Source: Gammaproteobacteria bacterium (GTDB lineage: Bacteria > Pseudomonadota > Gammaproteobacteria > Pseudomonadales > Azotimanducaceae). Taken from it: a DNA stretch of 45,663 bases. The notes under the pieces are model-generated. The model made no database searches. It was not told where the DNA came from and saw only the letters and a list, made by a program, of their open reading frames with translations. Positions 8,786 through 29,001 of this stretch are shown here, piece after piece. The position numbers and the translations under genes were made by a program. Numbering within the stretch: the stretch's first letter is position 1; each line of letters begins with the position of its first letter. The stretch lies in assembly GCA_009845835.1 (NCBI GenBank), contig VXYV01000017.1, forward strand, positions 1 to 45,663, given 5' to 3'.

Positions 8786-8870
8786 TGGTGCCCAGGGAGG
8801 GAGTCGAACCCTCACGCCCGAAGGCACAGGAACCTAAATCCTGCTTGTCTGCCAATTCCAACACCTGGGC
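8786..8870 (-). tRNA. tRNA-Leu(UAG), CCA encoded
   Basis: The minus strand folds into a complete 85-nt class II tRNA. It has a seven-pair acceptor stem (GCCCAGG with CCTGGGC), an anticodon stem CAGGA/TCCTG around the loop TTTAGGT (anticodon UAG), a long variable arm and a T arm with GGTTCGACTCC. The 3' CCA is encoded at 8786-8788. Confidence 0.95.
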
Positions 8871-9385: not shown

Positions 9386-12300
9386 ATGACACAGAAAAAA
9401 ATACTCTTGATTATTTTCGCGATCTTTGCTTCTGGTCTTCACGCACAAACGAGCAGTCACGATAAACCCTTAAGGGTGAGTGCGATTTACCCAACAGGAA
9501 CAGAGGTAGCTCTAGGCGATAGTATTACTATTGAATTCAATCAAAACATGGTGTCGTTTGGTAAATCAATGTTTACCGACGCGGCCATACCGATCAAAGT
9601 TGAACCGGCTCTGGAATGTGAATGGAATTGGGTTAAGTTGAACACTCTCAAGTGCGAGTTGCCTTTTGATTCCAGACTTGCTCCATCCACCAGATATCAG
9701 ATAACTGTGCTACCCGGAATCGTAGCGCCCCGGGGGCAATCACTTGAGCAAGAACACGTACATGTATTTGAGACAATCACACCTGCGATTCACCGCGTTA
9801 ACCTAGTCTCGTGGATGTCTCCGAATCAACCAATCTTAAAAGTTCAGTTCAACCAAGAACTTACTCGGGAACAATTACTCGGAAACGTGTACCTTTACGA
9901 TGAAGTTTCTGGTAAAGAAATACCAACCACAATAAAGCAGCATTCATATGATTTAGAACGGAGTCTTAGAGACGATTACTTCGGTCGTTCGAAACGTTAT
10001 TTATATAAACGTCGGTTTACGCAAGACGATGCGGTGATGGTTCTACCTGACGAGAACTTATCTTTCGAATCAAAAGTCTCGGTTGTGTTATCGGCAGGGG
10101 TTTCAGGCGCTTTGGGTCAACTAAAATCAACAAAACGTTTAGTTATTGAAACATCGATCACCACGTTTACTGAGGAATTTCGTTTATTGGGACTCCATTG
10201 TCGAGACTTTCACGGTGAATCACTATTTATTACGGCGGAGCAACCACTGGACGCTCTCTGTGCTGTGCAGGCTTCAGTTTCGTTAGAGTTCTCATCCCGT
10301 TTCGACGATATCAACTTGACGGACTATGTTCAGCTCGAACCCAGTGCTGATATAAACATTTATCTGAAATCGGGTCAAAGGATTACTAGTTCACGAAACA
10401 CTTTCCAAGGGATAGGTTCGCGCTATGTTCATCGCGGTACCTTAGCACCAGATACCAACTATATCCTAGAAATTAACTCGGAACCTCCACAATCAGTCGA
10501 AGGAGGTAGACAATCGTCGCTTGCAAGTCTCAAAGATGGATTTGGACGGACTCTAAGTGGACCTAATCAGATCAAGTTCAAAACCGCTCATCATTCTCCT
10601 ATGATGTCTTTGAGAACTCCATTAGTCGTCGACTCTGCAGACAGATATGAACCGATGCTTTCCTTACAAAATGTGGAAGATGTGACGATTATTTATGACT
10701 TAATGGACGGCCACGGAACCATTCGAAATCAGACGCGACAACTTCGAAACTTTGATCAAATCGATGTTGTTCAAAAGCAACCATTGGGCTTGAGATCGAC
10801 TCTTCGTTCTGCTTCGGGCGTCATGTATGGCACTATTGTTGGAAGCGCAACGTTTGAATATCCTCTAGAAAAGTTAGAATGGAGCTTTTTTGCTCAAGCC
10901 ACACCTTATTCAGTTTTCTTCAAACTCGGCGCACTCAGCACTTTAGCTTGGGTTGTCAATTTTCAAACGGGGCAACCTATCGCTAACGCGGAAGTTGAAC
11001 TCTTTAAGAGTGTTTCGACCAAGCTCGCTAAGTCAGATTCACCCATTATGAAGGGGATAACAAACACAAATGGTATTGTTGTTCTACCGGGTTTCAAAAC
11101 TTTCGATCCAAAATGGGATTTAGTCGATCATGACATGGATGAAAATTGTGCCGAGAATCGTGAATGTACAGCGTACTTCTTATACGTTGAAACGGACGAA
11201 GGACAGGCACTCCTGCCGGTTGTCGATGACTATCAAATCGGTAGGTCAAGGATGATCTTCAATGACTACATTGATCATTGGGCGACTACCGCTCAGAAAC
11301 TCTATCAACCGGGTGATACCGTGCATATCAAGGGTTATGTTCGTCGAGATCGCCATGAACATCGGACAATTTTTCAAGATGGACACTTTGCCCTTTGTGT
11401 CAGTGGACCAAGAGAACGCGAGTACGAAATAAACAACATTACGGTAAATGAATTTGGTGCATATGATGCGATTCTCAAGTTGAACAAGCAGACGACGTTG
11501 GGCGAATACAAAATTGTGCTGGTTTACGCCCCGGATTCGTCCTTAGCGGAAGTCTGTAGGGTAGCGGTAAGAGACTACGACGAAATAGACGTTTACTCGG
11601 CGTTGGAACTGTCAAGGTCGGATTCAGTTCAGTTTGAAGACGAAGAAAACAATGTTCAATTTCTTCAGTTCAGGGTCGGTGGCAAGTTTGAAGTTCACGA
11701 GTTCAAGACCAATCCCATTCGAGTCAGTCAATCATTTGATGCTGAATATTATGAACGCGAAGACTCCATGATCATCACTACGAAGGCAGAATTACATGCT
11801 GGTGATCCATATGCTAATGCCCCCAGTCGAGTCCATGTAACGATATCGGCGAAGACTCTACCGGTTAAGGTAGATGATGATTATGAGTATAAGTTCAGTG
11901 CGGGACGTTATGGTAACCATAGGAAAAGGTCGTGGGACGTTGGTATTGTATCTGATGAGTTTCAACTCAATCGCAAAGGATTCTACGAATATACCATTGA
12001 CGCGCTCACTAGTGACTTTTACTATGGTGAAATCACTGTGGAAACATCAGTCGCGAGTGATCGCGGTAAATATGTTGCGGTCACTTCTTCGGTACCCTAT
12101 TTCGGTGTCGATCAATTTGTCGGCATTAGACGACCAGTTGCGAACTACCGGTTGTCATACTCTCGCGGCATTCCGATTGGCGAGCCCTGGCCTATCAACG
12201 TATTGGTGGTTTCGAAAGATAATGAGATTGTACCCGAAAAAGTAGTCAGTATCACAGTATATCGGCGCGGTAAACAAATATTAAATGGAAACTATACTTG

Positions 12301-12472
12301 GTATCGAGTGTTTGACTGCGAGGTGATTTCAACTGTGCAAGTAGAGGCCTGCGACTTCACGCCACCCACAGAAACTATTACAAAGTTCAAGCCAAAATTT
12401 TCGATTCCAAAGGCAATCCACATCAATCTGAAATCCACATCAACGCAGTTGAGCGTAAACGTGAAAGTGTAG
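9386..12472 (+). CDS. A2M copy 1, 5' part: signal peptide and N-terminal macroglobulin domains
   Basis: This frame encodes 1028 residues. It begins with a clear signal peptide (MTQKKILLIIFAIFASGLHAQ) behind a strong GAGGGGG site. An SbsA/Big_5-like Ig domain follows (about 30-130), then macroglobulin-like beta domains, including the A2M_N-type segment DHWATTAQKLYQPGDTVHIKG. The last 30 or so residues are out of frame relative to copies 2 and 3 and are not native sequence. Alone it lacks bait and thioester domains, so it could not trap a protease. Confidence 0.75.
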   Translation: MTQKKILLIIFAIFASGLHAQTSSHDKPLRVSAIYPTGTEVALGDSITIEFNQNMVSFGKSMFTDAAIPIKVEPALECEWNWVKLNTLKCELPFDSRLAPSTRYQITVLPGIVAPRGQSLEQEHVHVFETITPAIHRVNLVSWMSPNQPILKVQFNQELTREQLLGNVYLYDEVSGKEIPTTIKQHSYDLERSLRDDYFGRSKRYLYKRRFTQDDAVMVLPDENLSFESKVSVVLSAGVSGALGQLKSTKRLVIETSITTFTEEFRLLGLHCRDFHGESLFITAEQPLDALCAVQASVSLEFSSRFDDINLTDYVQLEPSADINIYLKSGQRITSSRNTFQGIGSRYVHRGTLAPDTNYILEINSEPPQSVEGGRQSSLASLKDGFGRTLSGPNQIKFKTAHHSPMMSLRTPLVVDSADRYEPMLSLQNVEDVTIIYDLMDGHGTIRNQTRQLRNFDQIDVVQKQPLGLRSTLRSASGVMYGTIVGSATFEYPLEKLEWSFFAQATPYSVFFKLGALSTLAWVVNFQTGQPIANAEVELFKSVSTKLAKSDSPIMKGITNTNGIVVLPGFKTFDPKWDLVDHDMDENCAENRECTAYFLYVETDEGQALLPVVDDYQIGRSRMIFNDYIDHWATTAQKLYQPGDTVHIKGYVRRDRHEHRTIFQDGHFALCVSGPREREYEINNITVNEFGAYDAILKLNKQTTLGEYKIVLVYAPDSSLAEVCRVAVRDYDEIDVYSALELSRSDSVQFEDEENNVQFLQFRVGGKFEVHEFKTNPIRVSQSFDAEYYEREDSMIITTKAELHAGDPYANAPSRVHVTISAKTLPVKVDDDYEYKFSAGRYGNHRKRSWDVGIVSDEFQLNRKGFYEYTIDALTSDFYYGEITVETSVASDRGKYVAVTSSVPYFGVDQFVGIRRPVANYRLSYSRGIPIGEPWPINVLVVSKDNEIVPEKVVSITVYRRGKQILNGNYTWYRVFDCEVISTVQVEACDFTPPTETITKFKPKFSIPKAIHINLKSTSTQLSVNVKV

Positions 12473-15400
12473 AAGAAAAGGTCTCGCTCGAGTTGCACTG
12501 TAGTTCTCGGCAGGTTGCAGTTGGCGATACGGTCAAATGTGAAGTCAAAAACTATTTTGATTCGACACCTGTTCTTGTGACAATTGAACGGGCTGGTATT
12601 GTCGATCAATGGATTACTGAACTAGATCTTAGAAATCCTGTTATTGAGTTTTCTGTAGCAGAAACTTACGCGCCCCAATTCAAACTCTCGGTCATTGCCA
12701 TCGCTCGACTTGACGCCGGTGAACGAAAAGATACCCGTTTACATCGATTCGCGAGTGCCAAATTCAACGTTGAAGATTCACGGGCGATTCCGTTAAAGGT
12801 TATCGTGTTGTCGGATAGGTCGTCCTACGGTCCTCACGATACAGTGAAATTAACCATCAATGGAGAAAGTACAACACCGGTAGAGTATGCAGTTACTGTC
12901 ATTGATGAAGCCTTAATGGACTTGAGTCAAGCTAGTGAAAAGTATTACGACCCCACTCAGAAGCATTGGACAGTCAGAACTGATCCCGTACCGACCTTTG
13001 GTTTGATCCACCTGCTGAACAATTCTTGGCTTAGATCTTCTTATGGGTCTCGTTTAAGAAGGGAGATGTATAGTTCCATCAGTCCGCTGCAGCTTTCAAT
13101 GACGAGTGTGGTAAATACAGGTTCTCGGCTACCTGCACCTGCTTTAGGCGAACGTAAATCCTTCCAGCAAACGACCGATTCGAAAACAAGGCGCGTAAAT
13201 AAGTTTATTGCTTACTGGAATCCTTCGGTGATCGCGACCGACGAACCAGCTGAACTAGAGTTTGTGTTACCGGACAACTTAACGAGTTGGAAAGTGGTTG
13301 TAATGGCAGCATCGACAGATGATCGATTTGGATTTGCTTCGACCACATTCAATTCGGTGAAGGATACTGAAATTCGAACAGTTTCACCGAACGTAGTGAC
13401 AGAAGGAGACACTTTTCATGTTGGTGCATCCATTTACAATCGCGCCAATCGTGAACGAAATTTATTAGTCGAGTTAAGCGCTGATGGGTTGCTTGCAGAC
13501 ACCGTCAACAGTGAATTTAGAGAACGAATTCGCTTTGACCCACAGGAGCGTAAAGTTGTGACCATTCCGTTAGTTGCAGGTGAGTTACCAGTGGACTTTC
13601 AGAATTTGCAACAAACAGGGGAAATTAGATTTGTCGCCCGTGTACGTGATCGCCATGATCACGATGCACTTGATGTCCGCATTCCGGTACGAACCAGTCG
13701 TTTTCCCGTTTCGAGTGTCGTTTATGGAGCTCTAACCGGGGATTTAACGTCCATTCCTTTAGAAGTACCGGAAAAATTGGTTGATCAAACCGGAGAATTA
13801 AACCTTTCTTTAACCACTGAAGAAAAAGTCAATTTCGACGGGGTGTTTCAATATGTCCGAGACTACCCGTATTTTTGTTGGGAACAACATTTGACGAAAG
13901 CGGTTTTGGCGTTGCATTATTTACGTCTCGAAGCTGAGGGGGACAAGCACGGTGTCGAGTGGCATGAAGCACAAGAAATCATCGGTCAGCTTCTAGCAGC
14001 AGCGGTCGATCATCAAGCACCCAATGGAGGTATGGCTTTCTTCGCCTCTCGGGATGATGCGGCTCGACCGTACTTGTCGGCGTATACAGCCATTGTCTTT
14101 GCTTGGTTAGCAGAAGCTGGGTATGACGTGCCACGCAAAGTCAGCGAAAAATTGATTGGATATCTGAAAGAGTATTTGGCGTCGGATCTGACTGACGAGT
14201 ATGGGTGGCCTTCAGAACAAAATTCGACTGTGCTTTCAGGATATCAAGCAACTATCGGTAGTTTGCTTTTACATGCACTTTCGATTTCTGGTGAACTCGA
14301 AGTAGCTGAGCTAGACGTTTACTCCGAACAGATCCATCAACTACATCTATTTGGATTGTCACATTACCTGCTCGCGGCATTGAGAGTCGATCCGACTTTG
14401 CCTTTGATCGACAAAATTTTCACGCGCATTATGAATCATCGTTCGTTGGTCGACGGGGCAGTGGAATTCAGAGAGAAAGCCGTACCTTTAGCGTATGTGC
14501 GCATGCTACATTCAGACACTAGGTCACTATGTTCGGTACTAGAAGCATTAACCCTGATGTCAGAAAAGACTACCCAAGATATAGATATTGGAGAATTGAA
14601 GGAGTTAGCAAACGCAGTACGATATGCACGGGACAATCAACCACGTTGGATGAGTACGCAAGACAATGTTTTTTGTACCAATGCGATGCTTGCATATTCG
14701 GATTTTGTTGGTAGCAACTTCGACGAAATTTTTGCTACTGTTGATTTTCGTAGACAGGATACTGGGCAAACTACGCGCATTGCCGATGCTTGGCAGTTTA
14801 ACGCCGAGACCACAAAGTTGCAGACTCGATTTTCCTTGCAACCGCAGTTACTAGGTACCAATGGCACAATTGATATCGCACGCCAAGGAAATGGTACCGC
14901 GTTTTACAATGTGAAATTGTCGTATCTGAGCAAAACTGACAACGATCTAAATCGGTTTTCTGGTTTTGAAATCCATCGTGAATACGTCGTACTTAGAGGC
15001 CAAGAAACTTCTATTCTCAGTCCCGGAGATTCCGCAGAAAGAGGTGATATCATCTATGTCAATCTGTATTTGAACAATAAATCTGATCGATTTTTTGTTA
15101 TGGTTGACGATACGGTACCGGGTGGGATCGAACCAGTCAATTTTGCACTAGGAACCGAATCTCGGTTTATGGATTCTCAAGATGTCGATGACATCTTGCC
15201 GTCAAGTAAATTTTATGAAGATTTTCGACTAGCCCGCAGAGTTTGGGCAGATTACACTATTTCAAATGTGATTTGGGATTTATATGATATACGTGGTTTT
15301 AGACACAGAGAACTAGGGCTTCAAAACGTACGTTATTTTGCCGAAGAACTAGAGCGAGGAAAGTATCATTTGCAGTGGATTGGCCAAGTGATCACACCGG

Positions 15401-15495
15401 GTGAATTCACGGTGATCCCGACACATGTCGAAGAGATGTATCGTCCAGTTATGTTCGGTAAATCAGAACCCTGGACATTGATTGTTGAGCCTTGA
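12375..15495 (+). CDS. A2M copy 1, 3' part: bait-like segment, thioester domain and C-terminus
   Basis: Homology to copies 2 and 3 resumes near 12376 in this frame. The first start-like codon is only a TTG at 12493 with no ribosome binding site, so it is unlikely to be an independent gene. It carries a bait-like variable stretch (about 13018-13200), the A2M signature segment LPDNLTSWKVVVMAASTDDRFG, the thioester YFCWEQHL with Cys at 13876-13878, the alpha/alpha-toroid repeat region, and a C-terminal domain ending EPWTLIVEP. Confidence 0.7.
13018..13200 (+). other. Putative bait region of A2M copy 1
   Basis: These 61 codons between conserved blocks (ending PTFGLIHLL, resuming KTRRVNKFIAYW) differ from the other copies in length and sequence. 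They are rich in Ser, Arg, Leu and Thr. In the A2M family the bait lies between these macroglobulin domains and is cut by the target protease. Confidence 0.5.
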
Positions 15496-15513
15496 ATTTT
15501 GGAGTCTAATCTA
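15493..15513 (+). repeat. 21-bp spacer repeat, unit 1
   Basis: The stop codon of copy 1 and the next 18 bases are identical to those after copy 2 (21525-21545). The repeat supplies a GGAG upstream of the next copy and marks the duplication junction. Confidence 0.8.
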
Positions 15514-15515
15514 CG

Positions 15516-18500
15516 GTGGCAAATACGACAATGAAATTTTTGGTTTTGATAGCTATTGGAATCCTGTCCTGTGGGCTCTATGCACAAAACAGTGGTGCAA
15601 GTAAACCGTTAGAAGTCAGAGCAGTTTATCCATCAGGGTCCGAGGTGCGATCTACCAATCAGATTACGATAGAGTTTAATCAAAATGTCGTCGCGCTTGG
15701 TGCTTCGATGTTTATCGAAGATGCCATTCCGATAGAGATTGAACCTGCACTCGAATGTGAATGGAATTGGGTAGAGTTAGACACGTTGACGTGTGATTTA
15801 CCGTCCAACTCCAAGTTGGCTCTATCGACTAGGTATCAGGTTACTGTACTTCCAGGAATTCAGACATCGGGTGGTCAAACTCTTGCACAAGAATACGTTC
15901 ACGTGTTTGAGACAATTACACCTGCTATTTGGAGGGCCAGCCTCGTCTCATGGATGTCTCCTACGCAACCGATCATAACAGTCGGCTTCAACCAGGACGT
16001 TGAAAACAACGAACTTCATAATAAAGTTTTTCTGTTCGATGAAGTCTCTGGCCGAACAATACCTACCTCAATCAAACGAGATGACTGGCAGTTCAGATCA
16101 ACTCTCAGAGACGACTATTTTGGGACTGAGAGAAAGTATCTGAATGTGGAAGATTTTATACGCGGATCCGCCGTACTACTGCTGCCTGATGAACCGCTCT
16201 CACCTAGCTCGAAAGTCTCTGTTGTATTGGCGACCGGTGTCGCAGGCGCGACCGGAAATCTGAAATCGAAAGAACGCTTGGTATTCGATCCTTCGATTAC
16301 GACCTACGCCGAAGAGTTTAGATTGCTAGGATTTGGTTGTCATGACGTATTTGAAAATGTTTTGTATTTCGAAGCCGGCAAACCTGACATTCCCCGTTGT
16401 AGTATCTCGTCCCCAGTTATCCTCACTTTCAGTTCTAAATTCGTGGAACGCGAAATTTTTGATTACGTTCAGACCCAACCAACCACAAGCCTAGTTGGTA
16501 ACTCTTGGTATCGCAATTGGTATACCCCCAGCCTAGAGGGTATCGAAGGTATACATTACACGGTAAAAGGAGAATTTGCCCCTAATGAGACCTATCAATT
16601 CGCCCTAGCCCCTGAACCTCCCCAGAAAGCTCTTGAGGATATCTATCCCCGTGTGTTACCGGTTTACGATGGTTTTGGACGACCCTTGGTTGGGCCTAAG
16701 GAATTTGCAATACATACATCTCATCTTGCGCCCGAATCGAGATTGGAGGTAACGACTTTCGTAACAGCTGCAAACTCTCTGTTTGATCCGCAAATGCATC
16801 TTCGAAACGTGGATGACGTCAAAATCTTATTCGATACCATCGACTCAAACGGGGTGTCAAGAAATCAGATTTTTACTCGCATGGGCCCAGATCGTGACGA
16901 TGTTGAGGAATCACGACTGCTAGGTCTGAGAGCAGCACTCAACTCCGCCGGGGTTATGCGCGGCCGAATTGTCGGCAAGCCAAGATTCTCCTGGCCAGCT
17001 GACCAAACTGAGCATCAATTTTTTGCTCAGGTTACGCCGTATTCGGTCTTTTTCAAATTAGGTGAATACAACAGCTTAGCTTGGGTATTGGATTTACAAA
17101 CCGGCGCCCCCATCGCTAATGCAACCGTAGACTTTTACGAAAGCACCTCGATAGATTTCTTCCAACCAAAAAACAAGATTTTTACTGGATTTACAGATGA
17201 AGATGGTCTCTTAGTTGTACCGGGTTTTGAGACGTTTAAATCAGGTTGGGACGAGGCTGATCATTCAATGGAGCAAGAGTGTGAAGAGAACCGTGAATGT
17301 ACCGTATACCTAGCGAGGGTTACCAAGAATGAAGAGCTTGCGTTTTTGCCACTTGTCTCAGACTACCGCATTAACGGTCCGTACCGTTTAAAACTCCATG
17401 CAAATGTTGATCATTGGGCCACGACGGGACAGAAGTTGTATCGCCGTGGAGATACAGTTCATGTTAAAGGTTATGTTCGACTAGATTTTGATGAACAGCG
17501 GCAGATTCCAAAGACTGGAAATTTTGGTCTTTGCGTCAGGGGTCCAGAAGATCGCAATTATGAGTTCGACTCCTTATCGCTAAACGAATTCGGGGCATAT
17601 AACGAGACGTTCAAGTTAAACGATCACACGCCGTTGGGAGACTATAAGTTGATTCTTGTATATGACCCTATTAGACCGCTATCTGACGTGTGTTCCCATT
17701 TCCCCCATCGCTTTTTTCTGGACCTTTCACCGACAGACGGTATCCTAACCACGATTGGAGGTGAGTTTGAGGTATTCGAATTTAAAACCAATCCTATTCG
17801 CGTGAGTCAAAATCTAAGTGCCAAGACTTACGTGCGCGGGGAAGCAATGTCTATCGCAACAAGTGCTCAATTGCATGCCGGTGGACCTTATGCTGACGCG
17901 CAAGTTCAGATTGTGGTAGAAATTGATCCACAGGAACCACCTATTGATATAGTAGATACCGGCTTGTGGGAGTTTGACACACCATATCCTAACCGGTACG
18001 AGAGACGACGACTAGTTGAAGACACTGTACAGACGGATGATTTTGGTGAGAACACTTACGTAGTCGAACCGATCGATATTGACATTTACTACGGTGAGCT
18101 GGTGTCAGAAACTGCCGTAGCCAGTGACCGTGGTAAGTATGTCGCGGCGCGAGCATCGGCGGCCTACTACGGGGTGGATCAGTTTGTTGGGATACAAAGA
18201 CCCGATAGGTATAACGATTTTTATGACGGATACAACCAAGAAGTAAAGGTGAACGAACCGTGGCCGATTGGTGTACTGGTCGTCTCTAAAGATCAAGAAA
18301 TTGTCTCTGACAAGAAAGTGACCATCACAGTTTATGAACGGGGCGAAAAACTGTCCGGTGAAAGTAATCGGTACGATTGGAAAAAATTCTTCGATTGTGA
18401 GCTCATCTCGCAACCCCAGTTGGTTGCGTGCGAGTTCACTCCGACTAAGGAGACCTATTATCGAATTGAAGCTGAAATAGTCGATTCGAAAGGATATTCG

Positions 18501-21500
18501 CACCGCTCGCGTATTCAGATCGAAGCCATAGACGATGTACACGGATGGCTAGACAAACTGGAGCTTAAGGAAATAGTGGAGCTAGGTGTAAGCTGTAGCA
18601 ATAGTGCAGTCGGTGTGGGTGACTTGGTTCAATGTGAAGTTAAGAATCACTTTGATTCGTCGCCAGTTCTTGTCACTATTGAACGTGCTGGAATTCTAGA
18701 TCAATGGTTGGTGCGACTCGATGATGTAGATTCGATCATAGAGTTTAAAGTGCGCGAATCTTATGCACCGCATTTTAGAATGACGGTTCTTTCCACAGCA
18801 CCGAGAACCCGTGAAGGTCACGTAGGAAATGTCTATCAAGGCAGTTTCTTTCAACTCGCAAACGCAGAGTTTAAGGTCGAGGATCTCAGGTTTATTCCGC
18901 TTTCGCTAACCGTGGCAGCTGATCGTGAGACCTACAGCCCACGAGACACCGTGAAATTGACAATCACTAGTGACCACCCTTATGGTAAATCAATACCGGT
19001 CGAGTACGCAGTTGCTGTGATCGACGAAGCTCTGTTAGATTTGAGTGGTGCTGGTGAAGACTATTATGACCCCTCTAAGAAGATTTGGGATATAGATGTC
19101 AATGGACCAGTGACTTACGGATTAGTCGCTAGGTTGATGAACACATCACGAACGGTTACAAATATCGAATCTAGGTTGTTTAGGGAAGCTAGAGGGGTCA
19201 TGTTTTCAATGATGGCCTCCTACGACGATCCCCATTTGAACGAGGAGTTGCCTGATTCGAAGACTCGACGAGCTGACAAATTGATCGCCTATTGGGAACC
19301 CTCAGTTATCGCGTCGAAAAAACGCACAAAACTAGAGTTTGCACTACCGGACAATTTAACGAGTTGGAAAGTGGTGGTTATGGCAGTTTCGACTGATGAT
19401 CGGTTTGGATTTGCGTCGACAACCTTTGGTTCGGTTAAAGATACTGAGATTCGTCCAGTCGCACCCAATGTTGTGACAGAAGGCGACAAATTCCACCTAG
19501 GCGCGTCGATTTACAACCGTGCGAATCGTAACCGAACTCTAACGGTCGAGTTGCAAATTGAAGGGTTACTTGCTGCCGACGTAGAGAAGTCTTATCGAGA
19601 AAAATTGCGATTTGCTCCCCAAGAAAGGAAGCTAGTAACTGTTCCCGTCAAAGCTGGATTTTTACCAATGGACTTTCCAAACTACCAGAATTCTTCTGAA
19701 ATTACCGTCGTCGCTAGTGCGGGCGATCGTCGCGATAAAGATGCACTAGAGATGCATATTCCAGTGCGTACAAGTCGTTTCCCGGTATCGAGTATCGTTT
19801 ACGGTGCATTGGAAGGCGACTTAACCTCGATTCCGTTTGCGATACCGGACAAACTCGTAGACCAGAAAGGTGAGTTGACATTCTCGTTGGCAACCGACGA
19901 AGGTGTGAATTTAGATGGCGTGTTTCGCTATATACGCGACTATCGCTATCCTTGTTGGGAGCAACGACTCACAAGAGCACTGTTAGCAATGCAATACTCA
20001 CGAATCGAAAGACAAGGTGGGAAACACGGTATTCAATGGTCTGGAACGGAAGAAATCATCACAATGGTGTTGGACGAAGCGAGCAACTATCAAGCACCAA
20101 ACGGGGGTATGGCATTTTTTGAGCCTAAGAATGCCAACGCTAGTCCATATTTGTCAGCGTACACGTTGATTGCTTTTGCTTGGTTAGCAGACGCAGGTTA
20201 TAGTGTACCACAATCAATAAAAGATAAGTTGATTGATTTCTTAAGTGAAGTCATACCTTGGGATTCTGAAGATCTTGAACAAGATGTTCCATACGGCGAG
20301 AAGAAATTGTTAAGTCCCTTCCAAGCAACCGTTGGTGCAGTGATTCTTCACGGGCGGGCGATTTCAAATGAACTTAGCGAGAGTGAACTCATTGCATATT
20401 CTGATTACCTTGAACAGATGGGATTATTCGGACTATCTCAGTACCTGCTCGCGGCATTGGAATTAGATCCGCAACTACAGCTAATTGACGAGATTCTTGC
20501 GCGGATTATGAATCATCGATCACTGGTCGATGGTGCAGTGGAGTTTGTCGAAGATGCACCATTTTCAACTGGCGCCCGTTTACTGCATTCAGACACTCGA
20601 TCGCTCTGTTCAATTTTGGAATCACTGACGAAATATTCGGAACTGTCTTCGAATGGAATTGATGTAGGTGAATTAAAGGAGTTGGCTAACTCAGTTCGTT
20701 ATATCCGCGGCAGTTTGCCGCGTTGGATGAGTACACAAGATAACGTTTTCTGTACGCAAGCGATGTTAGAGTTTTCTGACTTTATGAGTTCGAAAGTTGG
20801 AGAGTTTGTCGCGACAGTGGACTTAAGCAGTCAAAGTACAGGAATGACCACTCGAATCGCTGATGCATGGCAGTTTGACCTGGACACAACACGGTTGCAA
20901 CAACGATACTCTCTAAAACCAGAACTGCTAGGTAATCGAGGGACTATAGATATCCGTCGACAAGGAAAAGGTATCGCATTCTATAACGTCGAGCTATCGT
21001 ATTTGACGACTGCAGACCGGAATCTCAACCGTCTCTCAGGCTTCGAGATCTACCGCGAGTATGTGGTTTTTCGTAACCACGAACCACAGATTTTACAACC
21101 TGGGGATCATGTTAATAAAGGAGAATTTGTCTTAGTAAATTTATACTTGAGCAACGAAGTAAATCGCTACTTTGTCGTGGTGGATGACACGGTGCCGGGT
21201 GGGATCGAACCGGTCAACGACGAGTTAGGTACCGAATCCCGATTTCATAAATCACGTGGAAAACAGGAGATTCTACCAACCAGCACGTGGTTTGATGTTT
21301 TTAAGAATGCGTCTAGCGGTGCAGGGTCATTTCGGTACCGTGAGTTAGGTTTACAGAACGTGCGTTATTTCGCTAAATACCTATGGCGTGGTAAATATCA
21401 TTTGCAGTGGATGGGTCAGGTGATTACGCCTGGTGAATTCACGGTGATCCCGACTCACGTCGAAGAAATGTATCGTCCAGTTATGTTCGGCAAGTCAGAA

Positions 21501-21527
21501 CCGTGGACACTGATCGTTGAGCCGTGA
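15516..21527 (+). CDS. A2M copy 2: intact secreted thioester alpha-2-macroglobulin
   Basis: This 2003-residue protein is the only unbroken copy. It is longer than the well-known enterobacterial YfhM type (about 1650). The start is GTG 15516 or ATG 15531; either leaves a signal peptide ending ILSCGLYAQ, in which ILSC could serve as a lipobox. Domains in order: SbsA-like Ig (about 30-130), macroglobulin domains including the A2M_N segment near residue 632, a variable bait-like region (about 1209-1253), LPDNLTSWKVVVMAVSTDDRFG, and the CWEQ thioester (1480-1483, matching CxEQ). An alpha/alpha-toroid and a C-terminal domain end in EPWTLIVEP. By family knowledge a protease cuts the bait, the thioester reacts and the protease is trapped at the outer membrane or in the periplasm. 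No pbpC lies beside it, unlike many bacterial A2M loci. Confidence 0.9.
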   Translation: MANTTMKFLVLIAIGILSCGLYAQNSGASKPLEVRAVYPSGSEVRSTNQITIEFNQNVVALGASMFIEDAIPIEIEPALECEWNWVELDTLTCDLPSNSKLALSTRYQVTVLPGIQTSGGQTLAQEYVHVFETITPAIWRASLVSWMSPTQPIITVGFNQDVENNELHNKVFLFDEVSGRTIPTSIKRDDWQFRSTLRDDYFGTERKYLNVEDFIRGSAVLLLPDEPLSPSSKVSVVLATGVAGATGNLKSKERLVFDPSITTYAEEFRLLGFGCHDVFENVLYFEAGKPDIPRCSISSPVILTFSSKFVEREIFDYVQTQPTTSLVGNSWYRNWYTPSLEGIEGIHYTVKGEFAPNETYQFALAPEPPQKALEDIYPRVLPVYDGFGRPLVGPKEFAIHTSHLAPESRLEVTTFVTAANSLFDPQMHLRNVDDVKILFDTIDSNGVSRNQIFTRMGPDRDDVEESRLLGLRAALNSAGVMRGRIVGKPRFSWPADQTEHQFFAQVTPYSVFFKLGEYNSLAWVLDLQTGAPIANATVDFYESTSIDFFQPKNKIFTGFTDEDGLLVVPGFETFKSGWDEADHSMEQECEENRECTVYLARVTKNEELAFLPLVSDYRINGPYRLKLHANVDHWATTGQKLYRRGDTVHVKGYVRLDFDEQRQIPKTGNFGLCVRGPEDRNYEFDSLSLNEFGAYNETFKLNDHTPLGDYKLILVYDPIRPLSDVCSHFPHRFFLDLSPTDGILTTIGGEFEVFEFKTNPIRVSQNLSAKTYVRGEAMSIATSAQLHAGGPYADAQVQIVVEIDPQEPPIDIVDTGLWEFDTPYPNRYERRRLVEDTVQTDDFGENTYVVEPIDIDIYYGELVSETAVASDRGKYVAARASAAYYGVDQFVGIQRPDRYNDFYDGYNQEVKVNEPWPIGVLVVSKDQEIVSDKKVTITVYERGEKLSGESNRYDWKKFFDCELISQPQLVACEFTPTKETYYRIEAEIVDSKGYSHRSRIQIEAIDDVHGWLDKLELKEIVELGVSCSNSAVGVGDLVQCEVKNHFDSSPVLVTIERAGILDQWLVRLDDVDSIIEFKVRESYAPHFRMTVLSTAPRTREGHVGNVYQGSFFQLANAEFKVEDLRFIPLSLTVAADRETYSPRDTVKLTITSDHPYGKSIPVEYAVAVIDEALLDLSGAGEDYYDPSKKIWDIDVNGPVTYGLVARLMNTSRTVTNIESRLFREARGVMFSMMASYDDPHLNEELPDSKTRRADKLIAYWEPSVIASKKRTKLEFALPDNLTSWKVVVMAVSTDDRFGFASTTFGSVKDTEIRPVAPNVVTEGDKFHLGASIYNRANRNRTLTVELQIEGLLAADVEKSYREKLRFAPQERKLVTVPVKAGFLPMDFPNYQNSSEITVVASAGDRRDKDALEMHIPVRTSRFPVSSIVYGALEGDLTSIPFAIPDKLVDQKGELTFSLATDEGVNLDGVFRYIRDYRYPCWEQRLTRALLAMQYSRIERQGGKHGIQWSGTEEIITMVLDEASNYQAPNGGMAFFEPKNANASPYLSAYTLIAFAWLADAGYSVPQSIKDKLIDFLSEVIPWDSEDLEQDVPYGEKKLLSPFQATVGAVILHGRAISNELSESELIAYSDYLEQMGLFGLSQYLLAALELDPQLQLIDEILARIMNHRSLVDGAVEFVEDAPFSTGARLLHSDTRSLCSILESLTKYSELSSNGIDVGELKELANSVRYIRGSLPRWMSTQDNVFCTQAMLEFSDFMSSKVGEFVATVDLSSQSTGMTTRIADAWQFDLDTTRLQQRYSLKPELLGNRGTIDIRRQGKGIAFYNVELSYLTTADRNLNRLSGFEIYREYVVFRNHEPQILQPGDHVNKGEFVLVNLYLSNEVNRYFVVVDDTVPGGIEPVNDELGTESRFHKSRGKQEILPTSTWFDVFKNASSGAGSFRYRELGLQNVRYFAKYLWRGKYHLQWMGQVITPGEFTVIPTHVEEMYRPVMFGKSEPWTLIVEP
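19140..19275 (+). other. Putative bait region of A2M copy 2
   Basis: These 45 codons lie between TYGLVARLM and TRRADKLIAYW. The segment contains several Arg, Met and Glu residues and is shorter than in copies 1 and 3. The flanking blocks are strongly conserved, while this segment hardly aligns. Confidence 0.5.
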
Positions 21528-21545
21528 ATTTTGGAGTCTAATCTA
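21525..21545 (+). repeat. 21-bp spacer repeat, unit 2
   Basis: It is identical to 15493-15513: stop codon of one A2M copy plus spacer leading to the next. An added AAAGAGGA at 21545-21552 then gives copy 3 a better ribosome binding site. Confidence 0.8.
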
Positions 21546-21556
21546 AAGAGGAACCT

Positions 21557-21892
21557 ATGACCAAGAACTTTCTGGGTTTGATATTCGTTGGGATCATCTT
21601 CTGTGAGTTGTATGCACAAAGTCTCGTTGCAGAGACATCTTTAGAAGTGCGAGCAGTTTACCCAACCGGATCCGAGGTTCGAATTTCCGCTCAAATTACC
21701 ATAGAGTTTAATCAAATTGTCGTCTCGCTTGGTGCTTCGATGTTTAACGAAGATGACATCCCGATAGAGATTGAACCAGCCCTCGAATGTGAATGGAATT
21801 GGGTTAAATTAGACACGTTGAAGTGTGATTTACCGACCAACTTCAAGTTGGCTCTATCGACTAGGTATCAGGTTACTAGGAACTTCTATTAA
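21557..21892 (+). CDS. A2M copy 3, fragment 1: signal peptide and first Ig domain
   Basis: The fragment encodes 111 residues behind AGAGGA: signal peptide ending CELYAQ and most of the SbsA-like first domain. The native sequence ends at RYQVT; the last four residues and stop come from the IS left end. Confidence 0.6.
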   Translation: MTKNFLGLIFVGIIFCELYAQSLVAETSLEVRAVYPTGSEVRISAQITIEFNQIVVSLGASMFNEDDIPIEIEPALECEWNWVKLDTLKCDLPTNFKLALSTRYQVTRNFY

Positions 21893-21983
21893 TTCTGCAA
21901 ATTGGTTAAATTGTATTGAATTGTGACTAGAATCACTAGTTGGAACAGGATTTCCAGAACTTGAGAAGACTGGAGGATTTGAG

Positions 21984-23084: not shown

Positions 23085-23120
23085 CCGTTCTTTCAGGGGG
23101 GCGTCCGCCCGCGTGCCTAA

Positions 23121-23143
23121 AAACAGGCATAAACCGCCTGTTT
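23121..23143 (+). terminator. Hairpin past the transposase gene
   Basis: AAACAGGC (23121-23128) and GCCTGTTT (23136-23143) pair perfectly over eight bases with a seven-base loop, 37 bases after the transposase stop. No T run follows, so the terminator role is tentative. Confidence 0.35.
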
Positions 23144-23257
23144 GGCGGGTAAATTCACTCATTTTTACCGCTTTTTTGCCAAATTTCTTCCAAAAATTCA
23201 ATTTTCAATGAGCACAAACCAAAACCAGCAAAATCATTCGTTAAATAGAAGTTCCCT

Positions 23258-25252
23258 ACTGTACTTCCAGGAATTCAGACACCACATGGTCAAACACTCG
23301 AACAAGAATACGTGCATGTGTTTGAGACGATCACGCCAGCGATCACGGACACACGACTGATTTCGTGGATGTCTCCTACACGGCCGATCATAAGAGTGGA
23401 ATTTAACCAAGAAATTGATCGAAACGAACTGCTCAATAAGGTTTTCTTGTACGATGAAGTCTTAGGGCGAACCGTACCAACGGCAGTCAAACTTTATACC
23501 TGGCAGTTCCGTGAAAAACTTGAAGACGATTACTTCGGTACTGAGCAGGAATACCTGAGTGCAGGCCATTTCCTGCGCGGAGATGAGGTTATCGTTTTTC
23601 CTTCCGAAGATCTTTCATATAGTTCGAAGGTCTCTCTTGTATTGTCTCCCGGTGTGGCTGGTACTTCAGGAAGTGTCGAATCAAAAGAAAAACAGTTGAT
23701 TGAAACGTCAATTAAGACCTATCCAGAAGAGTTTCGTTTACTAGGTTTTGCATGTCAAGATGTGTCTAGAAATTTTCTATACTCCGATGTCGGTGAAACT
23801 GATATCCTCCTTTGCAGTTTCTCGTCACCGGTTGCCTTAACGTTCAATTCTCCCTTTAAGGAGCGCCACTTGCAAATGTTGAACTCTAGTTTGTTTGAAA
23901 CGGAAACCTTTGAATACGTACAGATTCAACCACCTGTTAATGTAGGTGATCATTCGTGGAACGCATGGCGGCTAAGGGAAATCGAAGAAATAGAAGGCAT
24001 ACATTTCTTGATTAATCCTAATTTCGCCCCAAATACGACCTATCAATTCACGATAGCTCCTGAACTTCCTCTGACAGATCTAGAGGATATATATCCGAGT
24101 GTTTTACCCGTTTACGATGGTTTTGGACGGCCTCTAGTCGGACCTAATGAATTTGCAATACATACCTCCCATCTTTATCCCAAAGCGAGTTTAGAAGTAC
24201 GGACCTTGGTAACAGCAGCCAACTCTATGTTTGATCCGAAGATGTATCTTCAAAACGTGGACGAAGTCAACGCTTTTTTCGATACTATCGATTCTCAAGG
24301 AGTGTCAAAAAACCAGACATTCACTCGCACCGGCCCAAATCTTAACGATGTTGAGGAATCACGGTTACTTGGTCTGAGAGAAGCACTTAACTCTACCTCG
24401 GGGGTAATGCGTGGAAGCATTGTCGGAAAGCCAAGATTCGCTGGCCACGATGACCAACTTGAACACGATTTCTTTGCGCAGATTACTCCATATTCGGTCT
24501 TTTTCAAATTGGGCGAATACAACAGTTTAGCTTGGGTTTTGGATATACAATCCGGCGAACCCATTGCAAGAGTAACCGTTGATTTCTACAAAAGCACCTC
24601 GAAAGAATTTTTCAAACCACAACACAAGATTTTTACTGGTATTACCGATGAGGATGGCATCTTAGTTGTACCCGGCTTCGAAACTTTCGATTCCGGTTGG
24701 GATCAGGCTGATCATTCGATGGATCAAGAATGTGAAGAGGGTGAGAGCTGTACCGTATATCTTGTAAGGGTTAGCAACAACGAAGATCTTGCGTTTTTGC
24801 CACTCGTCTCTGACTACCGCATGAGTGGTCATTACCGAACAGATTTCGATAAAGATATTGATCACTGGGCAACTACAGGACAGAAGTTGTATCGACGTGG
24901 AGATACAGTTCAGATTAAAGGTTACGTTCGTCTGGAATACGATGAACAGCGACAGATTCCAGATTCAGGCAATTTCGGTCTTTGCATTGAGGGACCAGAA
25001 AATCGCAATTACGAAATCGACTCTCTATCTGTGAACGAATTTGGAGCTTATTACGCAGAGTTCAAATTATTCGACAGTACTCCTTTAGGAGACTATGAGT
25101 TAGTTCTAGTGTATGACCCCCTCCAACCACTTTCGGGCTCATGTTCACACGTCGGCTATTGGAAGTCGAAGACCGACGGAATCCAAATCGTGAGGGAAGG
25201 TGAGTTTGAGGTATTCGAATTTAAAACTAACCTTATTCGGGTCAGTCAATAG
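23258..25252 (+). CDS. A2M copy 3, fragment 2: N-terminal macroglobulin domains
   Basis: This continues copy 3 directly after the IS in the same frame as fragment 1 (TVLPGIQTPHGQTL...) to a premature TAG at 25250-25252. The first start codon in the piece is near 23312 and lacks a ribosome binding site. It includes the A2M_N segment DHWATTGQKLYRRGDTVQIKG. Confidence 0.6.
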   Translation, partial: TVLPGIQTPHGQTLEQEYVHVFETITPAITDTRLISWMSPTRPIIRVEFNQEIDRNELLNKVFLYDEVLGRTVPTAVKLYTWQFREKLEDDYFGTEQEYLSAGHFLRGDEVIVFPSEDLSYSSKVSLVLSPGVAGTSGSVESKEKQLIETSIKTYPEEFRLLGFACQDVSRNFLYSDVGETDILLCSFSSPVALTFNSPFKERHLQMLNSSLFETETFEYVQIQPPVNVGDHSWNAWRLREIEEIEGIHFLINPNFAPNTTYQFTIAPELPLTDLEDIYPSVLPVYDGFGRPLVGPNEFAIHTSHLYPKASLEVRTLVTAANSMFDPKMYLQNVDEVNAFFDTIDSQGVSKNQTFTRTGPNLNDVEESRLLGLREALNSTSGVMRGSIVGKPRFAGHDDQLEHDFFAQITPYSVFFKLGEYNSLAWVLDIQSGEPIARVTVDFYKSTSKEFFKPQHKIFTGITDEDGILVVPGFETFDSGWDQADHSMDQECEEGESCTVYLVRVSNNEDLAFLPLVSDYRMSGHYRTDFDKDIDHWATTGQKLYRRGDTVQIKGYVRLEYDEQRQIPDSGNFGLCIEGPENRNYEIDSLSVNEFGAYYAEFKLFDSTPLGDYELVLVYDPLQPLSGSCSHVGYWKSKTDGIQIVREGEFEVFEFKTNLIRVSQ

Positions 25253-27955
25253 CTGGACGCCCCTAGCTATGAACGCGGGGAATCAATCACAATCACAACT
25301 ACTGCTGAATTGCATGCTGGCGGTCCTTATGCAGCGGCTAACGGGCAGGTCGCGATAGATATTTATCCAAAGATACGACCCATCGATATAGTCGATACCG
25401 ATTTTTGGGAGTTTGACAGAAATCGACGGACATGGTACCCTCAGCGTGGAATTATCGAAGACACGATTAAGTTAGATGAAAACGGTAAGAATAGCTATTT
25501 GGTCGAATCTTTCGATAGTCAAATTTACTATGGCCAATTAATCTCGGAAACTGCTGTATCCAGTGATCGTGGCAAACATGTCGCAGCGCGAGCATCTGCT
25601 ACCTACTTCGGCGTGGATCAATTTGTCGGAATTGAACGACCCGACGAGTTCAATAAGTATCGGATCGGAAACCGGCAAGAAGTACAAGTGAACGAACCAT
25701 GGCCAATCAACGTACTGGTCGTATCCAAAGACCAAGAAATCATCTCTGACAAGACAGTATCTGTCTCAGTTTATGAACGCGGTGAGAGGCAGTATGGACA
25801 AATAGATCCCTATGAATGGACTGAATTCTTCAACTGTGAGATCATTTCTCAACCACAAAAGGCTTCGTGTGAATTCACGCCGACTGCGGAAACCCATTAT
25901 CGAATTGTGGCAGAAATAACAGACTCGAAAGGACATTCGCACCTCTCATATATTGAAATTGAAGCAATTGACGACGAAACTCGGTGGCTGGATAAACCAG
26001 AACCAAAAGAAGTAGTGGAGATGGAGTTGGAGTTGACCTGTGATAACAAAAAAGTCGCCGTTGGCGATTTAGTTGAATGTAGCGTTCAGAATCACTTTGA
26101 CTCAACTCCAGTTCTTGTCACCGTTGAACGAGCTGGAGTTATTGATCAATGGTTAGTGAGACTAGATAATGTAGACCCAGTCTTTGAGTTTGAAGTACTC
26201 GAAACCTATGCGCCACGCTTTAGATTGGTGGTTCTGTCCACGGCACCCAAAACGCCTGCTGGTCATGTAGGGAGTGTCTATCATGGTAGTTTTTATCAAC
26301 TAGCAAAGGTAGGGTTTACGATCGAAAATCCTCGGTTAATTCCACTTTCGATTAAAGTGGCTGCAGATCGTCAGACCTACAGCCCTCGAGACTCCGTGAA
26401 ATTGACGATCACTAGTGAAAGAAACTACGGCAAGTCGATACCAATTGAATATGCAATTGCAGTAATCGACGAAGCTTTGTTAGATTTAAGTGACGCTGGT
26501 GAGGACTATTACGACCCAACCCAAAAGATATGGGACATTGATACTGATGGAGTAATGATTTATGGCTTAGTCACAAGGTTGATGAATATATCGCGAAAAA
26601 AAACCACATCAGGTTCGCGTTCTCGAATGAACGATTATTCTTCCGGCGACTCTGGTGGTATTCGTCCCTCATACATGACGCCATTCGAAGATGTTTCCCA
26701 GCTAAGTGAGTTAGATGAGAAGAGGGCGAAATCTGAGACACGCCGAGTAGTTAGGTTTCTAGCTCATTGGGAGCCTTCGGTTCTTGCGACGGGTGAACGC
26801 ACAAAACTAGAGTTTTCACTACCGGACAATTTGACGAGTTGGAAAGTGATGGTTCTGGCAGTTTCGGCAGATGATCGATTTGGATTTGCTTCGACAACCT
26901 TTGGATCGATTAAAGACACCGAAATTCGCCCGGTCGTTCCCAATGTTGTGACCGAAGGGGACAAATTTCACCTCGGGGCATCCATTTACAACCGGACCAA
27001 TCGAACTCGTACCTTAACGGTGGAATTGCAAGCGAAAGGATTACTGTCTACCGAGGTAGAAAATTCCTATCGTGAGAGATTGCAATTTGCTCCACAAGAA
27101 CGAAAATTAGTTACTTTTCCATTCGAGGCTGGGTTTTTACCGCGAGATTTTCAAAGTTACCGACGTTCTGGAGAGATTACCGTCGTCGCGAGTGCTGGAG
27201 ATCGTCGTGATAAAGATGTCCTGGAGATGCGGATTCCGGTACGAACTAGTCACTTCCCGGTATCGAGTGTGGTTTATGGTGCTTTGGATGGCGACTTGAC
27301 CTCCGTTCCATTTACGATACCAGAGAAACTGAAGGATCAGAACGGTGAGTTGACATTCTCGCTCACCACTGATGAGGGAGTAAATCTAGACGGTGTTTTT
27401 CGCTACATTCGTGACTACCGTTATCCTTGTTGGGAACAACGACTTACACGTGCCCTGTTAGCTATGCAGTATTTGCGAATCGAAGACGAAGGGGAACAAC
27501 ACGGTATTCAATGGTCAGAAGCCGAAGAAATCATCGAATTGGTTTTGGATGAAGCGATCAGCTATCAAGCACCAAACGGTGGTATGGTATTTTTTGAACC
27601 TAGGGACTCCAATGTTAGTCCGTATTTATCGGCGTACACCTTGATTGCTTTTGCATGGTTAGCTGACGCGGGATATGACGTACCGCAGTCGATAAGAGAT
27701 AAGTTGGTCAATTTCTTACGAACTTACATGACTTGGGAAACTAACCGGATTGCTTGGGTGCCACGCGAAGAGAGGAAGTGGTTTGGGCACTTCCAAGCAA
27801 CCGTTAGTGCAGTGATTCTTCAAGCACTAGCGATCTCAAATGAACTTGCCGAGAGTGAACTCATTGAATATTCTGATCGCCTTGAACAGATGGATTGTTC
27901 GGACTATCTCAGTATTTGCTTGCGGCACTGGAGGTGGATCCGAAACTACCTCTAA
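25253..27955 (+). CDS. A2M copy 3, fragment 3: bait-like region and thioester domain
   Basis: The reading continues in the same frame beyond the TAG (LDAPSYERGE...). It holds a bait-like stretch (26585-26750), the LPDNLTSWKVMVLAVSADDRFG segment and CWEQ (Cys at 27428-27430). Native sequence ends at LEQM (27890-27892); the final 20 or so residues are out of frame. Confidence 0.6.
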   Translation: MDAPSYERGESITITTTAELHAGGPYAAANGQVAIDIYPKIRPIDIVDTDFWEFDRNRRTWYPQRGIIEDTIKLDENGKNSYLVESFDSQIYYGQLISETAVSSDRGKHVAARASATYFGVDQFVGIERPDEFNKYRIGNRQEVQVNEPWPINVLVVSKDQEIISDKTVSVSVYERGERQYGQIDPYEWTEFFNCEIISQPQKASCEFTPTAETHYRIVAEITDSKGHSHLSYIEIEAIDDETRWLDKPEPKEVVEMELELTCDNKKVAVGDLVECSVQNHFDSTPVLVTVERAGVIDQWLVRLDNVDPVFEFEVLETYAPRFRLVVLSTAPKTPAGHVGSVYHGSFYQLAKVGFTIENPRLIPLSIKVAADRQTYSPRDSVKLTITSERNYGKSIPIEYAIAVIDEALLDLSDAGEDYYDPTQKIWDIDTDGVMIYGLVTRLMNISRKKTTSGSRSRMNDYSSGDSGGIRPSYMTPFEDVSQLSELDEKRAKSETRRVVRFLAHWEPSVLATGERTKLEFSLPDNLTSWKVMVLAVSADDRFGFASTTFGSIKDTEIRPVVPNVVTEGDKFHLGASIYNRTNRTRTLTVELQAKGLLSTEVENSYRERLQFAPQERKLVTFPFEAGFLPRDFQSYRRSGEITVVASAGDRRDKDVLEMRIPVRTSHFPVSSVVYGALDGDLTSVPFTIPEKLKDQNGELTFSLTTDEGVNLDGVFRYIRDYRYPCWEQRLTRALLAMQYLRIEDEGEQHGIQWSEAEEIIELVLDEAISYQAPNGGMVFFEPRDSNVSPYLSAYTLIAFAWLADAGYDVPQSIRDKLVNFLRTYMTWETNRIAWVPREERKWFGHFQATVSAVILQALAISNELAESELIEYSDRLEQMDCSDYLSICLRHWRWIRNYL
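26585..26750 (+). other. Putative bait region of A2M copy 3
   Basis: About 55 codons between MIYGLVTRLM and TRRVVRFLAHW, with a Ser, Gly and Arg rich first half and an acidic second half. It is unlike the matching stretches of copies 1 and 2. Confidence 0.45.
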
Positions 27956-29001
27956 ATGACGAGATATTTGCACGAATTATGAACCACCGTTCACTAGTCA
28001 ATGGTGCGGTGGAGTTTTTCGAAAACGTACCGGTGACAAGTCGCTACCGTCTACTGCATTCCAGTACTCGCTCACTATGTTCGATTCTGGAATCGCTAAC
28101 GAAATTTTCGGAATTATCTTCGAATGGAATCGATGTAAGCGAATTAAAGGAATTAGCGAACTCGGTTCGTTATGTTCGTGATGATTTGCCACGGTGGATG
28201 AGTACCCAAGATAATGTTTTCTGTACGCGAGCGATGCTAGAATTTTCTGACTTTATGAGTTCGAAAGTCGGAGAATTTCTCGCGACAGTGGACTTAAAAA
28301 GCCACAGTTCCAGGACAACCACTCGTCTGGCGGACGCTTGGGAATTTAACCTTAAAACGACAAGGCTGCAACAAAGTTACACTCTAAATCCCCAGATAGT
28401 GGGTGAACGTGGGGCGATAGAGATCAGTCGTCAGGGAAACGGTACCGCGTTCTATAACTTCGAGCTATCGTATTTAACTTCTGCAGACGAGAAACTCAAT
28501 CGTTTCTCAGGTTTGGAAATCCATCGAGAATACGTGGTTTATCGTAACCAAGAGTCGCATATCCTACAACCCGGGGATCACGTTCATAAGGGTGAAATCG
28601 TCGTTGTAAATTTATACCTGAACAACAAAATTGATCGTTATTTTGTTGTTGTGGATGACACAGTAGCGGGTGGCATCGAACCGGTTAATTATGAATTGGG
28701 GACAACATCAGAGTTTGATTTATCTCATGGGAGACATGATATTTTGTCGTCAAGTCAGTGGTCTGAGGAATTTAAAGACGCATCGCCTGGCAGTTGGGAT
28801 TTTGAGTACCGTGAACTGGACTTACAAAACGTGCGTTATTACGCTAAACGCCTTGATCGTGGTAAATTTCATTTGCAGTGGATTGGTCAAGTGATTACAC
28901 CAGGTGAATTCAAGGTAATTCCTACTCACGTTGAAGAGATGTACCGTCCCATTATGTTCGGTAAATCCGAACCGTGGACTTTGATTGTAAAAGAAAACTA
29001 G
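27893..29001 (+). CDS. A2M copy 3, fragment 4: C-terminal domains
   Basis: After a missing G the copy resumes in the next frame as LFGLSQYLLAALEVDPKL and runs to EPWTLIVKEN. The nominal TTG start at 27895 is an artefact of the frameshift. Confidence 0.6.

What the first reader, a model, noticed from the sequence alone, without database searches (positions are those of the whole stretch)
9386..29001. Tandem triple array of giant thioester A2M genes with divergent bait regions
Three head-to-tail copies of an unusually long (about 2000 residue) bacterial alpha-2-macroglobulin fill nearly 20 kb. All keep the CWEQ thioester and the flanking LPDNLTSWK block almost unchanged. The segment where the family places its protease bait differs in length (about 61, 45 and 55 codons) and sequence. 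This is seen directly. That A2M proteins trap proteases through bait cleavage is family knowledge. The inference is that the array is a diversifying antiprotease set aimed at different foreign proteases, for example from predators, hosts or competing bacteria. No pbpC, the usual partner, is present, so it is not the common colonisation-type A2M locus.
Basis: partly seen in the sequence, partly recalled or inferred. Interest (0 to 1): 0.72.

Follow-up and report, generated by a model that had tools for sequence, protein, structure and literature searches.

The report
Decaying tandem array of bacterial protease traps
Three giant protease-trap (alpha-2-macroglobulin) genes sit in a row, but two are broken; in arrays like this one the trap's protease-bait loop has become one of the most variable parts of the protein, whereas in related single-copy genes of other bacteria the same loop is strongly conserved.

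Summary
The three head-to-tail A2M genes are real (9386-29001), but only copy 2 (15516-21527, 2003 aa) is intact. Copy 1 has a frameshift. Copy 3 has an IS in its 5' part, an in-frame TAG and a frameshift. The array lies between two divergent tRNA-Leu genes that sit 134-214 bp apart in three relatives, so it was moved in or grew there.

The bait claim holds in part. The segment at the bait position is disordered in the model and less alike between copies (33-36% identity) than the rest (56-70%). Other loops also dip, and dN/dS above 1 was not seen.

The unexpected result is a contrast. In 65 single-copy relatives from other bacteria, mostly pbpC-linked, the slot is a 22-24-residue sequence conserved better than the rest. 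In tandem arrays of this genus it is longer (42-57 residues in the window), has lost that sequence and changes fast. In the order sample 35 of 145 genomes carry an A2M domain and only this one more than one.

I read this as a type I A2M trap family released from a conserved bait, multiplied and bait-diversified in a probably sponge-associated genus, now decaying in this genome. Which proteases are trapped is unknown.

The parts
8786..8870 (-). tRNA-Leu(UAG), left border of the inserted block
   Evidence: ARAGORN; 134-214 bp from tRNA-Leu(UAA) in G002, G007 and G014
9386..12472 (+). A2M copy 1, N-terminal part (Big_5 and MG2; bMG3 below its cut-off); frame lost after a one-base indel near 12,376
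12493..15495 (+). A2M copy 1, C-terminal part (BRD, A2M, CWEQ, bMG10) in another frame; the open frame reaches back to 12316
13018..13188 (+). bait segment of copy 1 (57 codons)
15516..21527 (+). A2M copy 2, intact, 2003 aa, the only copy able to give a whole protein
   Evidence: residues 897-2003 modelled
19140..19265 (+). bait segment of copy 2 (42 codons); pLDDT blocks of 28-38 in the model
21560..21877 (+). A2M copy 3, 5' piece
   Evidence: query 5-110, 75% identity
21878..23257 (+). insertion sequence with DDE transposase (ORF 21984-23084), inverted ends, target duplication ACT at 21875-21877 and 23258-23260
   Evidence: only full copy found in the genome
23258..25252 (+). A2M copy 3, second piece, ends at an in-frame TAG (25250-25252)
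25253..27955 (+). A2M copy 3, third piece (BRD, A2M, CWEQ); frame lost near 27,892
26585..26740 (+). bait segment of copy 3 (52 codons)
27895..29001 (+). A2M copy 3, last piece (bMG10)
29157..29467 (+). tRNA-Leu(UAA) holding a group I intron; right border of the inserted block
   Evidence: (RF00028, 55.1 bits) and ARAGORN with introns

Best explanation
The block is a tandem array of type I bacterial alpha-2-macroglobulins: exported protease traps in which a foreign protease cuts the exposed bait, the protein closes round it, and the CWEQ thioester bonds to it. In this genus the family left its usual state, one gene beside pbpC with a strongly conserved bait, and became pbpC-free arrays with longer, quickly changing baits. 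I infer that each copy offers cut sites to a different range of proteases met in a host-associated (probably sponge) habitat. In this genome the array arose by duplication within its own lineage, sits at a new site between two tRNA-Leu genes and is decaying: copy 2 alone can make a whole trap. Shown: sequence, breaks, bait position, contrast in bait conservation, different site. Inferred: trapping activity, export, benefit of diversity, habitat.
For: Pfam bMG10, A2M, MG2, BRD in copy 2. Fold search puts Salmonella and E. coli A2M in the first five places (4u48 E 7.5e-48). CWEQ in all three copies. Bait inside the model's longest low-confidence stretch, 293-358. Bait identity 33-36% against 56-70% in the rest, three window pairs. 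Bait dN over rest dN 1.97-3.47 in 7 of 7 array pairs from relatives, below 1 in 25 of 26 close outside pairs, 1.09 in the one pbpC-linked genus pair. 65 outside baits of 22-24 aa share one sequence pattern. pbpC-like gene in 49 of 67 outside loci and 0 of 6 array loci as fetched. Arrays in same-genus genomes; more than one A2M domain in 1 of 35 A2M-bearing genomes of the order sample, this genome. Window copies one clade, SH-aLRT 100, C-terminal part only. Empty site in three relatives.
Against: No trapping, export or expression data. Bait dN/dS stays below 1, so relaxed constraint explains the pattern without any gain. Other loops vary almost as much, and in the 9 distant same-genus copies the bait ranks only 64th of 2002 windows. 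Two of three copies are broken here, and broken or thioester-less copies occur in relatives, which looks like turnover rather than a maintained repertoire. The two tRNA-Leu genes are adjacent in only 3 of 10 relatives' stretches fetched; in 3 only the UAA gene and in 4 neither was found there. The model's domain layout fits solved A2Ms poorly (TM 0.35, pTM 0.62).
Confidence: 0.6

Rival explanations
1. Relaxed constraint only: after losing the pbpC-linked role, the bait became a free linker and drifts; the copies are redundant and die.
For: Bait dN/dS below 1; broken copies here and in relatives; thioester cysteine lost in three full-length relatives; other loops vary too.
Against: The rest of the array copies is constrained (dN/dS 0.14-0.19 in seven pairs); CWEQ kept in 19 of 25 aligned genus copies; some copies are kept as orthologues across species; baits became longer, not shorter.
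Confidence: 0.3
2. The frame breaks are assembly or sequencing errors and all three copies work.
For: The single-base breaks cannot be checked without reads; dN/dS between copies 2 and 3 is 0.13-0.20 over the three longer pieces, as if constrained; the genome is fragmented (122 contigs).
Against: An IS with a target duplication and an in-frame TAG are not typical errors; 11 of 11 other window stretches compared with relatives show no break; relatives also hold split copies.
Confidence: 0.06
3. The pieces are expressed as separate proteins that still assemble (split A2M).
For: The two pieces of copy 1 are each about 1000 aa and carry whole domain sets.
Against: I see no signal-like start on the C-terminal pieces (by eye); break points differ between copies, and an IS and a stop break copy 3 elsewhere.
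Confidence: 0.03

Closest known systems
Type I bacterial A2M beside pbpC (E. coli YfhM/ECAM, Salmonella A2M)
   Same: Domain set, CxEQ thioester, disordered bait before the A2M domain, an EXMY motif (EEMY) near the C-terminus; best solved-structure matches (PMC4498604 passages)
   Different: Longer (about 2000 aa against 1614-1647 in the solved chains), CWEQ rather than CLEQ, tandem, no pbpC, no clear lipobox, variable bait
Single-copy ~2000-aa A2Ms of other bacteria (67 loci, L056-L123 except L074)
   Same: Same architecture over the whole length, 26-31% best-segment identity in the listing, CWEQ in 65 of 67
   Different: One gene per locus, pbpC-like gene in 49 of 67, 44 of them within 1 kb, bait 22-24 aa and strongly conserved
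Type II bacterial A2M (Pseudomonas MagD)
   Same: No pbpC; some array relatives lack the thioester as MagD does
   Different: Window copies keep CWEQ; I saw no mag-like operon in the window's gene list (by eye); MagD traps without thioester (PMC5764988 passages)
Animal thioester-containing proteins with variable baits
   Same: Thioester protein families with variable parts in animal immunity; the parallel is recalled, only listings were seen
   Different: Bacterial, tandem; no recent shared origin shown

Membership tests
Type I bacterial A2M | CxEQ thioester motif | tested here: met
   CWEQ in copies 1, 2 and 3
Type I bacterial A2M | MG2, bait-region (BRD), A2M and MG10 domains in family order | tested here: met
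   Pfam in copy 2; profile and fold matches
Type I bacterial A2M | Disordered bait between BRD and A2M domain | tested here: met
   Model residues 293-358 below pLDDT 50
Type I bacterial A2M | Gene beside pbpC | tested here: not met
   described as frequent, not obligatory (PMC3328433 passages)
Type I bacterial A2M | Lipoprotein signal (as in YfhM) | tested here: inconclusive
   By eye: copy 1 has no cysteine there; copy 2 has one in a poor lipobox context
Type I bacterial A2M | Traps a protease after bait cleavage | not testable with these tools
   needs protein
Type II bacterial A2M | No CxEQ | tested here: not met
   CWEQ present
   0.29-0.66 (bait dN over rest dS) in seven array pairs of relatives; dS about 1 or saturated between window copies; other loops also dip

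The most novel reading that the evidence does not exclude
A bacterial protease trap changed regime: a bait strongly conserved across several phyla in mostly pbpC-linked single genes became, in pbpC-free tandem arrays of a sponge-associated genus, a hypervariable bait that works as a repertoire against many proteases, with arrays that move between chromosomal sites and include thioester-less members.
Probability: 0.35. Interest if true: 0.8.

Novelty: new variant of a known kind. Interest (0 to 1): 0.57.

Why it matters
Bacterial A2Ms are described as broad-spectrum traps. The strongly conserved bait in single-copy relatives suggests instead a fixed partner protease or a structural duty, and the arrays are a natural experiment in which that constraint was dropped. 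Exchanging conserved and array baits would test directly what the bait is for and whether copies divide up proteases.

Tried and rejected
A single-protein search of genome contigs found no relatives; the alignment search did. Confinement of divergence to the bait was tested and rejected. Shared location was tested: the site of the relatives' arrays, beside a DUF2857 gene and a TraD-like gene, is present without A2M on this genome's contig C34. In 9 more distant same-genus copies (G003, G007, G014) the bait ranks only 64th of 2002 windows. The conserved bait does not need an adjacent pbpC: outside loci without a pbpC match, some of them cut short, have the same bait. A suspicion that pyrF in the window carries a stop was tested and rejected; its frame is open.

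Limits. The outside set is the best 80 hits only (75 loci). Two of 67 outside loci (L080, L123) were dropped from the bait comparison for frames under 1600 aa. The array set there was ten thioester-bearing copies (copy 2 and nine from G002, G008, G009, G011); thioester-less copies, broken copies (copies 1 and 3 too), the solitary pbpC-linked genes and the distant arrays were left out. Pairs are not independent lineages. Bait identity is counted over the longer bait. The tree used the C-terminal part only; no tree of the N-terminal part was built, where copy 1 is less like copy 2 (49% against 58-61%).

Papers. None of the titles listed in ten searches (capped lists) reports such arrays. Passages of PMC6697440 tell of repeats of an A2M-like domain in a sponge-associated archaeon. 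Term look-ups in PMC8163846 and PMC8941161, both on sponge symbionts, found no 'macroglobulin'. Budd 2004 is not held.

Full report
What is there. The window is contig C78 of a 2.54-Mb, 122-contig genome, 95.7% complete. Three A2M-family genes run head to tail at 9386-29001. Copy 2 (15516-21527) is a whole 2003-aa frame. Copy 1 lies in two frames whose open stretches overlap at 12316-12469, with a one-base indel near 12,376. Copy 3 is in four pieces: a 1380-bp IS (21878-23257) sits after about codon 110 with target duplication ACT, then come an in-frame TAG at 25250-25252 and a frame change near 27,892. The IS has no other full copy in the genome. Copies 2 and 3 differ at dS about 1.0-1.1 in the three longer pieces (0.38 in the short 5' piece), yet copy 3 carries only three lesions. 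So the decay is recent compared with the duplication, unless the single-base breaks are errors. Eleven other stretches of the window that I checked against relatives, about 12.6 kb, have no break.

Where it sits. In G002, G007 and G014 two divergent tRNA-Leu genes lie 186, 214 and 134 bp apart; in the window the same pair is 20,286 bp apart and the array fills the gap. In the other seven of ten stretches fetched, three (G006, G010, G015) showed only the UAA gene and four (G005, G008, G009, G011) neither. In G002, G005, G008, G009 and G011 arrays of the same type end beside a DUF2857 gene. A TraD-like gene lies on the other side on the same contig in G002, G009 and G011; in G008 it lies on the contig that holds the other part of the array; in G005 it is on another contig. 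In the window's genome the same two genes are about 0.86 kb apart on C34, with one small gene and no A2M between. The array is therefore at a different site from its relatives'. By tree (C-terminal part, quick method) the three window copies form one clade (SH-aLRT 100), while several copies of relatives group across species. That fits duplication within this lineage.

Distribution. Of 18 same-genus genomes including this one, 11 have a match to copy 2 and 7 have none. Tandem frames of about 2000 aa occur in G002 (4), G011 (3) and G007 (3), with further whole or broken copies in G003, G005, G008, G009 and G014. In a sample of the order, 35 of 145 genomes have an A2M domain; 34 show one match and only the window's genome shows more. 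The relatives with arrays are not among that sample's listed matches; G006 and G010 of the genus are in it without a match. One paper matches a Nitrospira sp. SB0677 to sponge samples (PMC12203066, passages); otherwise the sponge origin of these series is recalled, not shown, and the window's own source is unknown to me.

The bait. I take as bait the stretch between TYGL..L and R..D..AYW. It is 57, 42 and 52 codons in copies 1, 2 and 3. Bait identity against the rest is 36/61% (copies 1-2), 34/56% (1-3) and 33/70% (2-3). In an alignment of 15 close copies the bait is the 2nd lowest of 1963 windows (0.17 against 0.46 overall), with other dips of 0.22-0.23 at residues 800-841, 312-353 and 711-752. 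In 9 distant same-genus copies it ranks 64th of 2002. AlphaFold2 gave its longest low-confidence stretch at model residues 293-358, which covers the bait. The fold search put Salmonella and E. coli A2M in the first five places, though domain placement fits poorly (TM 0.35-0.40). The profile alignment to YfhM places the segment at and just after Arg923-Leu942, the stretch not seen in cleaved E. coli A2M (PMC4498604 passages; the residue mapping is mine).

The contrast. In 65 of 67 outside-genus loci (two dropped as short) the same slot is 22-24 residues and resembles GRQKFEKKGANPGGDGGSDLSM. At matched identity of the C-terminal half, baits of ten array copies and of outside genes hardly overlap: at 0.5-0.6, 25 array pairs 0.17-0.39 against 1028 outside pairs 0.36-0.95; at 0.6-0.7, 9 pairs 0.30-0.40 against 127 pairs 0.59-1.00; at 0.7-0.8, 5 pairs 0.37-0.48 against 14 pairs 0.82-1.00. 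Bait dN over rest dN is 1.97-3.47 in 7 of 7 array pairs and below 1 in 25 of 26 outside pairs, 1.07 in the other. G008 and G009 also carry a solitary A2M beside a PBP1C-like gene (Transgly, Transpeptidase and BiPBP_C in the G008 one); its 34-residue bait is as conserved as the rest (85%). G012 has a pbpC-like neighbour, CTEQ and a canonical-looking bait. A pbpC-like gene was found in 49 of 67 outside loci, 44 of them within 1 kb, and in none of the 6 array loci as fetched. The search patterns that found the outside loci lie outside the bait.

Selection. Bait dN over rest dS is 0.29-0.66 in the seven array pairs, about two to three and a half times the rest but not above 1. Diversification is thus shown as change of rate and length; positive selection is not shown. 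dS is saturated or 2.6 for copy 1 comparisons.

Thioester-less members. Of 25 full-length genus copies aligned, 19 have CWEQ and one CTEQ; three have lost the cysteine (G002 17910, G008 C25 3697, G009 C14 31520) and two have CWEH (G003 C51, G014 C9 35984). MagD shows that an A2M without thioester can still hold a protease (PMC5764988 passages), so these need not be dead.

Mechanism. Shown: the parts, their order, bait position, contrast and breaks. From family knowledge: cleavage, closing and thioester bonding. Inferred: export (signal-like N-termini, by eye), an antiprotease role in a host, and benefit from several baits. I hold the trap reading likely, the repertoire reading possible, and drift after loss of the pbpC role as the main rival.

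Noticed in passing
29157-29467: tRNA-Leu(UAA) with a group I intron (Rfam 55.1 bits, cut-off 50); an intron-bearing tRNA-Leu(UAA) was also found near hyuB in 6 of 10 relatives' stretches (G002, G006, G007, G010, G014, G015).
   Followed up: partly
L151 (G000 C34) 9929-13388; L152 and L027-L029 (G011 C34): TraD-like and DUF2857 genes with neighbours that look like an integrated conjugative element (my reading); relatives' A2M arrays sit there, this genome's does not.
   Followed up: partly
L056-L122 except L074, bait segments: Strongly conserved 22-24 residue bait in single-copy A2Ms of several phyla, hard to square with a broad-spectrum lure.
   Followed up: yes
L030:17175-19899: Row of outer-membrane-protein-like genes (the first hits OMP_b-brl; the others by eye) next to the DUF2857 gene and the array in G008; similar rows in G005 and G011.
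   Followed up: no
L030:3697-9801, L034:6521-12631, G002 C35:17910-23984: Full-length A2M paralogues without the thioester cysteine inside the arrays.
   Followed up: partly
2214-6124: VRR-NUC/FAN1-HTH nuclease gene (4520-6124) overlapping a DEAD_2/Helicase_C_2 helicase gene (2214-4550).
   Followed up: no
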